This document shows, piece after piece, positions 34,501 to 37,500 of a stretch of 64,000 nt of DNA. How positions within the stretch are numbered: the stretch's first letter is position 1; each line of letters begins with the position of its first letter. Source of the stretch: Glandiceps talaboti (taxonomy: Eukaryota > Hemichordata > Enteropneusta > Spengelidae); assembly GCF_964340395.1 (NCBI RefSeq), contig NC_135568.1:9030276-9094275 (forward strand), given 5' to 3'. The position numbers were made by a program, and so were the translations under genes. Below the pieces are notes generated by a model that saw nothing but the letters and a program-made list of their open reading frames with translations, had not been told where the DNA came from and ran no database searches.

Positions 34501-37500
34501 TATTGTATGTACGACAAAAAACTTTTTAGTCACTTTTTAGTTAATTACAAATTTATTGAGTAACAAACATGTTGAATAACAAGATAAAAAAAATACTCCT
34601 TTGCCATCCAAAATTTTCCAAAAAAACATGAAAAATAAAATCCAGTAGGAGAACTGCTCACAATATGCACTTTGAAAATTATTTATATGGACAGATTATC
34701 ATCAGTGGAGATTTCCGAAGACTCTAGCCTAGTGGCTGCTGGATTCGCCGATTCTATCGTACGTATCTGGCCTTTAACACCACGCAAACTTAGAGCTGTG
34801 AAAGGACCCGATGATCTGGCTACCATCGATAAAGACGCTGATGATGTCTTGGAGAGAATTATGGATGATAGGTAAGAGATGGTGTCAGTTATCTTGTCTC
34901 ACAGACAGAGATACCGATAATTTGTCAAAGTCAGTATCGTGCAGGTCACAGGTTTTATGTTAGTATTTTGACTTCAGTAAAAAGTTAATAAATTCAACTT
35001 GTGCCCAATTTATATGGAAATTTGACCAGAAACCAATTTAGTTTCAAGGTATTCTTACTATGTATATTTTCCTTATTACAGAACGGCTGCTGACAGTCGT
35101 ACATTACTTGGTCACAGTGGACCAGTGTATTCTAGTAGTTTCACCCCTGATAGGACAATGTTATTATCCTGTTCTGAAGATGGTACAGGTAAATATGAAC
35201 CATTCAATATCCATATGCCAGTAGAAAATATAATTTCTTTTGCCATAGATGGCGCTGTTCAGTCATGCCATAGATGGCGGTGTTTAGTCATGCCATAGAT
35301 GGCGCTGTTCAGTCATGCCATAGATGGCGGTGTTCAGTTATGCCATAGATGGCGCTGTTCAGTCATGCCAGAGATTGCACTATTCAGTAATGCCATAGAT
35401 GGCGCTGTTCATAAATGCCACATCTAGAATTTAGCTACTAAGTAGTATATTGTTTACATGCTACTACAGAGTACTTCTCTGATAGTTACACATCTTAACA
35501 TTTATTCATTGTTGTGATGTGTTAATGCTAGAGGAAGAAAGTTAGACTTCTCCAAACTAGAGGTAAAAGCTGTAGGTCCCTGTGTCACAATGGACATGAT
35601 GATAGCATAATTTGCTATGTCCATTGGTGGCGCTATAACACTTGAATGTGTAATTTTCAATATTATAGTATTTGTTATGTCTGTTGGTGGCGCTATAACA
35701 GTTGTATAATATTCAATATAATAGTATTCTTATTTCCTGTATTTACAGTCCGTTTATGGAGTTTACAGATGTATGTAAATTTGGTGTGTTACAAGGGACA
35801 TAATTACCCAGTCTGGGATGTACAGTTTGGGTAAGTTAGACACTGTCTGTTATAAGGGACACAGTTACCCAGTCTGGGATGTACAGTTTGGGTAAGTTAG
35901 ACACTGTTTGTGATAAGGGACACAGTTACCCAGTCTGGGATGTACAGTTTGGGTAAGTTAGACACTGTCTGTTATAAGGGACACAGTTACCCAGTCTGGG
36001 ATGGTACAGTTTGGGTAAGTGAGACATTGTCTGTTATAAGGGACACAGTTACCCAGTCTGGGATGTACAGTTTGGGTAAGTGAGACACTGTCTGTTACAA
36101 GGGACAGAGTTACCCAGTCTGGGATGTACAGTTTGGGTAAGTGAGACACAGTCTGTTACAAGGTACACAGTTACCCAGTCTGGGATGTACAGTTTGGGTA
36201 AGTGAGACACTGTTTGAATTTTAGAATTGTACTGTAACTGTATCTTATATATATGTAAATGTCACCTTGAAGGTTGATATCTACAAGTAGATCCTCTTGT
36301 TAGTTTTGTTCCATCCCAAAGTAAGTGACACAAAAGTACAGTGTATGGACTGTAGATGAGAAGCTATAATGACCATCTTCACAATATCAGTCACATCAGG
36401 AGAATGTTGTCTACTCTAGAATCATCACAGGTTGACATATTTCATTGTTTTCTTACTTTACAGACCATATGGGTATTACTTTGTATCAGCAGGTCATGAC
36501 AAAACAGCAAGATTGTGGGCGACTGAAAACCACCAACCAATTAGAATATTTTCCGGTCATCTTTCTGATGTTGATGTAAGTTTCAATAACTCCCAGCTGC
36601 TGATATGTTCTTGTATCTTAGTATGATGGGGTTCCGAGATGTGTGACGGACAGTGTCCCATGCTTGGTACTTGCGCGATGACTTGCAGTGTTCTCTGCAG
36701 GCATACTCTCACAAGCCATGACAGTCACAAACCATTAGCGGTCCAAGTGCAACAAACCCGCGGGCTTGCCTGGCGAAAACAGGTGTCATAAAAGTTGTTT
36801 GCATCTCTAAAGCTGTTTGTAGCGTTACTTATAAGAGCCTAATAAATTGATAACAACTGATATAAGACGGAGATAAGGTTTGCCTCAATTGCAGTCCATG
36901 CAGACGGCCGAATAGAGGTTTTCTGTTTACTTGTGTTATGTAAGAGCCCATCATCACATGTGTAAATATTTGTACTCTTTGATAACAAGTCCACTTGCTT
37001 GGCTAATGGCTTGTCCCAGTAATGCAAGGAACCATGCTGGCGTGCTGTTATTATGTCATTACGTTTATCCAAAACAGGCAAAATTTTGTTTTAAAATTAA
37101 ATAGATAAATAAATAAATAAATAAATAAATAAATAAGTAACTAAATAAACAAATAGATAAATAAATAAATAAATAAATAAATAAATAAATACAAGCCTGA
37201 CAGTTTGCAGTTATATGCTCTCAGCCTACCAATGTTTCGTGTATTGATTAAAATTTTAGTACTCAAATGAATGAATTGTGTATTTTCGGAAATGCAATAT
37301 CTGCTAAACAAGAATGTTTTAATCATGTTGTAATTATTTGTTTAGCAAGCAAAGATCATGATTTTGCAGAAATCATGTGGGTACATGTGTTATTCGAGAA
37401 TAAAAAAAAGTTCAAAGAATTCAAACACTGAGGGCGCTCTTCTACTCAAAAGTGAAAACCTCTCAGATAGATAAGTTTATTGTTTTTGTCATGATTCTAG

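What the first reader, a model, noticed from the sequence alone, without database searches (positions are those of the whole stretch)
35790..36215. Seven tandem copies of an exon 3' end with its splice donor in TAF5
The last 30-40 bases of exon 13 and its donor are repeated seven times, and every copy keeps TTTGG|GTAAGT. The spliceosome therefore meets seven near-identical donors. Use of any but the first reads GGG TAA and stops translation within WD40 blade 3. This could work as decoy or buffering donors, or as a dosage switch through nonsense-mediated decay. The array is seen directly; any function is inference.
Basis: partly seen in the sequence, partly recalled or inferred. Interest (0 to 1): 0.8.

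Follow-up and report, generated by a model that had tools for sequence, protein, structure and literature searches.

The report
Repeated splice donor in TAF5 gene
In what looks like an acorn worm, the end of one exon of the TAF5 gene and its splice signal stand seven times in a row; this looks like a probably harmless kind of DNA stutter already described in lancelets and seen in other genes here too, with no clear sign that it is a switch.

Summary
In detail: a 61-bp unit holding the last ~44 nt of a TAF5 exon plus TTTGG|GTAAGT stands seven times at 35787-36213. Any donor but the first gives GGG TAA. The functional reading (decoys, buffer, dosage switch) is not supported, nor excluded. The donor is no better kept than the rest of the unit (P = 0.12). 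Two sister arrays lie in the same gene: a ~1.28-kb unit with another exon end, GT lost in 2 of its 3 extra junction copies, and a 60-bp unit with the last codons and stop. Of 38 scored kinase donors in this genome 3 lie in such arrays, about as often as nearby intron positions; a NEK-like kinase has eight GAG|GTAAGT copies. This is the 'mirage' phenomenon of amphioxus, minisatellites across exon-intron junctions, reported not to disturb splicing in Adh3, globins and TnC. Identical donors in exon-definition minigenes were spliced at the upstream one, which predicts use of donor 1. The host is most likely a hemichordate. New here: a case outside lancelets and its recurrence across genes.

The parts
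35787..36213 (+). Array A: seven copies of a 61-bp unit = ~44 nt of TAF5 exon end + donor + 17 nt of intron
   Evidence: TRF; unit alignment
35749..35830 (+). TAF5 exon (82 nt) that contributes copy 1; donor 1 at 35831
   Evidence: acceptor tttacag before 35749, open frame, TAF5 match
35831..35836 (+). donor 1 GTAAGT, the one that gives the conserved protein
35832..35834 (+). in-frame TAA met if any of donors 2-7 is used
   Evidence: read directly
35892..36203 (+). donors 2-7 (35892, 35953, 36015, 36076, 36137, 36198), same 9-mer TGG|GTAAGT as donor 1
36464..36575 (+). next TAF5 exon, acceptor after tactttacag
29697..34290 (+). Array B: ~1.28-kb tandem unit that begins with the last 20 nt of TAF5 exon 29597-29716 and its donor; four copies of that junction: GTAAGT at 29717 and 32268, ATAAGT at 30989 and 33965
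   Evidence: self-alignment, best pieces 92-93%; copies aligned
40292..41022 (+). Array C: 60-bp unit, 12.3 copies, which begins in the last ~29 coding nt of TAF5 and includes the stop codon (40318-40320)
29597..40320 (+). TAF5 exons to the C-terminus: 29597-29716, 34695-34871, 35082-35188, 35749-35830, 36464-36575, 37539-37652, 38173-38350, 39178-39271, 40206-40320
   Evidence: joined open frame with GT-AG junctions
9936..12131 (+). upstream matches to TFIID_NTD2, probably TAF5 exons (9936-10070, 10768-10908, 12021-12131)
   Evidence: genome positions C22:9040211-9042406 converted to the window

Best explanation
A neutral 'mirage': a tandem duplication whose break points happened to lie on either side of an exon-intron junction grew into a minisatellite by unequal exchange or slippage. 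Copy 1 stays the real exon end because the spliceosome, defining the 82-nt exon across the exon (flanking introns 560 and 633 nt), takes the donor nearest the upstream acceptor. Copies 2-7 are ordinary intron, kept alike by youth and array turnover rather than by selection on the donor. The array and the reading frame are shown; use of donor 1 is inferred from protein conservation and published analogues; neutrality is inferred from the tests below.
For: Donor invariance is not beyond chance: 10 variable columns of 62, P = 0.12 for an untouched 11-mer, P = 0.32 for the longest run. Sister array B lost GT in 2 of 3 extra copies. Array C spans the stop codon, where no donor is involved. Of 38 kinase donors of the same genome, taken without regard to repeats, 3 are spanned by arrays (4 with L053 by eye), against 3-5 of 38 at sampled intron positions +20 to +230. 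Arrays in 18 arbitrarily placed 10-kb stretches are not clearly enriched in donor motifs: 2 of 21 against 1.7 expected at score 8 and 0.9 at score 9. Amphioxus mirages in Adh3, globins and TnC duplicate splice sites and are reported not to disturb splicing; for PGBD5 the authors only infer it. In five minigenes with two identical CAG/guaagu donors under exon definition the upstream one was used exclusively.
Against: No RNA data were available, so use of donor 1 alone is not shown. All seven donors here are intact, all eight in L064, and two of three extra copies in the more diverged L078 keep GTAAGT. The kinase sample is small. Arrays covered exon 3' ends (TAF5 3 of 9 including the stop end; kinases 3 of 38) but no exon starts (0 of 9; 0 of 20); one-sided P = 0.27 with kinases alone, 0.049 pooled with the ascertained gene. 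That hints at a bias that random placement does not explain.
Confidence: 0.82

Rival explanations
1. Dosage switch by decoy donors: a fraction of transcripts uses donors 2-7, reads GGG TAA and is removed by nonsense-mediated decay, so that copy number tunes TAF5 output.
For: All seven 9-mers are identical and every downstream use gives a stop at 35832-35834, upstream of later junctions. The intron-proximal rule alone would favour donor 7; in PMC9225289 the unfiltered human data lean to the downstream donor in about 60% of events. Some other arrays keep their donors (L064; two of three extra copies in L078).
Against: Invariance is not significant; array B and L052 have lost donors; at equal strength in exon-definition minigenes the upstream donor is taken exclusively; amphioxus analogues in Adh3, globins and TnC are reported to splice normally.
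Confidence: 0.08
2. RNA structure in each unit hides the extra donors: a hairpin UUACCCAG...UUGGGUAA folds over every donor, so that the array is silenced by structure rather than by position.
For: The 40 nt around donor 1 fold at -13.2 kcal/mol, z = -2.3 (4 of 200 shuffles fold as well); copy 2 z = -2.4 (0 of 200); two other TAF5 donors show z = 0.3 and -0.5. Donors 6 and 7 are the least open with windows of 80 and 150 nt, donors 5-7 with 250 nt.
Against: The hairpin covers donor 1 too. Unpaired probabilities of donors 1-4 are alike (0.022, 0.019, 0.016, 0.023 with a 150-nt window), and seven other TAF5 donors range from 0.0002 to 0.14. It cannot by itself single out copy 1.
Confidence: 0.05
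3. Assembly artefact: the copies were multiplied by the assembler.
For: Tandem arrays are error-prone; PMC3902484 notes differing copy numbers between versions of a lancelet assembly.
Against: The copies differ at 10 columns; the genome is in 47 contigs, which suggests long reads; similar arrays occur at independent loci.
Confidence: 0.04

Closest known systems
Mirages: minisatellites across exon-intron junctions in amphioxus (Adh3, BflGb6, BflGb9, TnC, PGBD5)
   Same: Tandem units that begin in an exon, run over the splice junction into the intron and often repeat the AG/GT signals; in BflGb9 the 3' boundary of the exon; units of 60 and 108 bp in PGBD5, 10-72 bp in Adh3.
   Different: Another phylum (mitochondrial traits of a hemichordate), another gene, seven copies all with an intact donor; a sister array runs over the stop codon, which I did not see in the passages read.
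Intron gain by tandem genomic duplication of AG/GT sites (Rogers model; potato RdRp, PMC4974935, search listing only)
   Same: Tandem duplication around a splice signal supplies new donors.
   Different: No usable acceptor or new intron is apparent here by eye; the copies lie inside an existing intron.
Tandem duplicated exons with mutually exclusive use (recalled)
   Same: Tandem copies of exon sequence inside one gene.
   Different: The unit here carries only the exon end and donor, without the exon's acceptor, so it is not a whole exon.

Membership tests
Mirage (exon-intron junction minisatellite) | Tandem repeat whose unit spans an exon-intron boundary | tested here: met
   unit = ~44 nt exon + 17 nt intron, seven copies
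Mirage (exon-intron junction minisatellite) | One copy is the authentic junction and keeps the protein intact | tested here: met
   splicing at donor 1 gives 163 aa matching a TAF5 chain over equal length, open frame through nine exons
Mirage (exon-intron junction minisatellite) | Regular splicing despite the copies | not testable with these tools
   no RNA data
Mirage (exon-intron junction minisatellite) | Length instability between alleles or tissues | not testable with these tools
   one assembly only
Selected decoy-donor array | Donor kept better than the rest of the unit | tested here: not met
   array A: P = 0.12; array B: GT lost in 2 of 3 extra copies. Not tested in L064 and L078, where most donors are kept
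Selected decoy-donor array | Arrays placed on donors more often than on nearby intron | tested here: not met
   3 of 38 at donors, 3-5 of 38 at ten sampled intron positions +20 to +230
Intron gain by tandem duplication | A usable acceptor within the unit so that a new intron is spliced | not tested
   no pyrimidine tract before an AG seen by eye in the unit; not scored

The most novel reading that the evidence does not exclude
Mirages are a genome-wide feature of this hemichordate: several per cent of all splice donors may sit at the head of a tandem array of near-identical donors, with a bias to exon 3' ends, so that its spliceosome routinely picks the first of many equal donors. If so, the genome holds a large natural experiment on donor competition and a standing supply of raw material for new introns.
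Probability: 0.45. Interest if true: 0.6.

Novelty: new member of a known kind. Interest (0 to 1): 0.38.

Why it matters
Natural arrays of seven or eight equal donors are a clean test of how the spliceosome chooses among identical sites: position, not strength, must decide. They also show mirages, reported only from lancelets in the papers read here, in what looks like a second deuterostome phylum and in several genes of one genome. For TAF5 itself nothing found here points to a regulatory role.

Tried and rejected
Selection on the donors of array A: tested, not significant. Enrichment of donor motifs in arrays at large: 18 arbitrarily placed 10-kb stretches (round-number positions; 7500 of 180000 bases are N), 2 of 21 arrays at score 8 or more against 1.7 expected and 2 of 21 at score 9 or more against 0.9; window, 3 of 15 against 1.5 and 0 of 15 against 0.75. 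The donor matrix was typed from recall (human-like frequencies). RNA structure as selector of donor 1: the same hairpin in the copies. Acceptor-side arrays in kinases: 0 of 20, acceptors picked by a simple score, that of L052 doubtful. An AAA-ATPase place that looked like a mirage in the match table was a whole-exon tandem duplication. Of 132 kinase matches I fetched 40; L061 and L072 were dropped for want of a clear donor, leaving 38; the donors of L053, L064, L083 and L084 were set by eye. L053 (two copies by eye) misses the strict cut and is not in the 3 of 38. The first 20 places have 600-bp flanks, the second 20 only 250 bp beyond the match; all were scored in the same -40 to +245 window, so long units are missed. 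In one search one comparison used 18 loci where 19 was right; it is not used. I did not use Rfam, PADLOC, structure prediction or the viral, phage and plasmid collections, which do not bear on the question.

Full report
What is there. A 61-bp unit stands seven times at 35787-36213 (TRF). Each unit has about 44 nt of a TAF5 exon end, the donor TTTGG|GTAAGT and 17 nt of intron; donors start at 35831, 35892, 35953, 36015, 36076, 36137 and 36198. The exon is 35749-35830 and the next starts at 36464. Splicing there gives residues that match 567-729 of a TFIID subunit 5 chain over the same length of 163 (human by recall), within one open frame over nine exons that ends with TAG at 40318-40320. Any later donor reads GGG TAA at once. 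Three TFIID_NTD2 matches upstream in the window and one on another contig suggest a single TAF5 gene plus one relative.

The host. The genome is 590 Mb in 47 contigs. Its mitochondrial DNA has 13 TGA in the COX1 match, a tRNA-Lys with anticodon CTT and 53% G+C (ARAGORN also lists a weak Lys/Asn candidate with TTT on the other strand). AAA is absent from eight of nine reading frames counted and occurs twice in the 671 codons of the ninth, ND5 (gene names by eye). According to passages of PMC3121625, tRNA-Lys CUU marks Ambulacraria; Balanoglossus lacks AAA, echinoderms read it as Asn, and lancelets and Saccoglossus have UUU. tRNA order around COX1 (W, A, C, Y, COX1, S, D, COX2, K) is of the chordate and hemichordate type and echinoderm orders are very different according to PMC2697986 (passages). 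Against a place in Balanoglossus itself: two AAA codons, and a CYTB-like frame at 3395 between ATP6 and COX3, whereas ND5 and CYTB are neighbours in the two hemichordates of PMC2697986. So the animal is most likely a hemichordate, probably an acorn worm; no database named it.

Not the only one. Two more arrays in the same gene cross the 3' end of a coding exon. Array B, unit about 1.28 kb, begins with the last 20 nt of exon 29597-29716 and its donor; the four copies of the junction read GTAAGT, ATAAGT, GTAAGT and ATAAGT. Array C, 60 bp by 12.3, begins in the last ~29 coding nt and carries the stop codon. Of nine exons, 3 have the 3' end in an array (one of them the stop end) and 0 the 5' end; 6518 of 10404 non-coding positions between 29597 and 41100 lie in arrays, the whole of array B counted, against 93 of 1099 exonic positions. 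The window is richer in arrays than the genome sample: 16.7% of bases against 5.1% (9200 of 180000) for periods of 20 or more.

Elsewhere in the genome. I listed kinase-domain matches (132, a capped list) and fetched 40, chosen by partial domain match without regard to repeats. After dropping two without a clear donor, 3 of 38 donors lie in a tandem array (L052, L064, L078; exact 95% interval 1.7-21%), and a fourth, L053, shows two copies by eye. At ten sampled intron positions from +20 to +230 the count is 3-5 of 38. L064, a NEK-like kinase by my reading, has eight copies of an 84-bp unit, each with GAG|GTAAGT. The donor copies fare differently: lost in the degenerate array of L052; in L078 lost in one of three extra copies and kept in the other two; in L053 the copy is nearer the consensus (GTAAGT) than the original (GTAGGT). 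Acceptors: 0 of 20. The excess at exon 3' ends over exon starts is P = 0.27 with kinases alone and 0.049 pooled with TAF5, so it is only a hint.

No clear sign of selection on the donors. Ten of 62 columns vary among the seven copies; an untouched 11-nt donor has P = 0.12 and the longest invariant run P = 0.32. Copy 1 differs from copies 2-7 in its coding part (CATAAT against CACAGT in five copies and CAGAGT in one), as expected if the real exon is held by the protein and the others drift together. Arrays in the 18 sampled stretches are not clearly enriched in donor motifs. Against this, the retained donors of L064 and L078 leave room for some constraint.

How it most likely works. All seven 9-mers are equal, so position must decide. 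The exon is 82 nt, with introns of 560 and 633 nt. In PMC9225289 (abstract and the first part of its results) five minigenes with two identical CAG/guaagu donors and 365-nt introns used the upstream donor exclusively; with donors of near-equal strength, upstream choice prevails for exons between long introns, downstream choice for exons between short ones. Unfiltered human data lean to the downstream donor in about 60% of events, which is against a simple rule. Applied here, donor 1 is used and copies 2-7 are intron. The unit can fold a hairpin over its donor (-13.2 kcal/mol, z = -2.3), but so does copy 1, so structure alone does not pick the donor.

What is known. [quoted passage not shown] its RT-PCR and the Adh3 data suggest regular splicing, it allows that copied signals could be cryptic sites, and it notes length instability. 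Passages of PMC3902484 add PGBD5 (60 and 108 bp) and TnC. The TAF5 array meets the anatomical features; splicing and instability could not be tested. My searches that touch hemichordates and splice-junction minisatellites in general showed no hemichordate case in the titles and abstract openings listed (at most 15 rows each, of up to 1,509 papers); one search found no paper. The library holds open-licence papers only.

Verdict. The array is real, of a known kind, and probably neutral. The modest news is a case outside lancelets and its recurrence across genes of one genome.

Noticed in passing
29697-34290: A ~1.28-kb tandem unit that begins with an exon end and donor; three of its copies hold a 17-bp minisatellite (CTGGTAGTCCCATTTCA) that has reached different lengths (10.8, 12.1 and 36.1 copies).
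   Followed up: partly
40292-41022: 60-bp array, 12.3 copies, that starts in the last ten codons of TAF5 and repeats the stop codon beyond the reading frame.
   Followed up: partly
L064:755-1429: NEK-like kinase (by recall) with eight 84-bp copies of an exon end and donor; the unit is a multiple of three and open throughout, so retention would add repeats instead of a stop.
   Followed up: partly
L053:540-620 (minus strand): The copied donor 60 nt downstream (GGGGAG|GTAAGT) is nearer the consensus than the original (GGAGAG|GTAGGT): a natural test of position against strength.
   Followed up: no
L078:39-311: A more diverged array of an exon end in which two of three extra copies keep ATGTAG|GTAAGT and the nearest one has lost it.
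   Followed up: partly
L089:1-651 (minus strand): A katanin-like AAA exon (by recall) is tandemly duplicated as a whole (72% identical), with only about 50 nt between the copies: a candidate pair of mutually exclusive exons.
   Followed up: no
22540-25190: A collagen-like gene with a C1q-like end on the minus strand (Gly-X-Y frame translated for 22540-23480; the rest by eye) lies between the TFIID_NTD2 matches at 12.1 kb and the TAF5 exon at 29.6 kb, apparently nested in TAF5.
   Followed up: partly
L059:888-1286 (minus strand): An ~80-bp array that ends close to the acceptor of a kinase exon; its units carry AAG|GTAGGA-like words, which may be copies of the previous exon's donor.
   Followed up: no
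35797-35836: The TAF5 exon end can fold with its own donor into a hairpin of -13.2 kcal/mol (z = -2.3), which the array repeats.
   Followed up: partly
G000 contig C40: A 51-kb contig holding the 15.4-kb mitochondrial genome in about three head-to-tail copies (COX1 at 12741, 28176 and 43611), probably an assembly concatemer; a CYTB-like frame lies between ATP6 and COX3.
   Followed up: no
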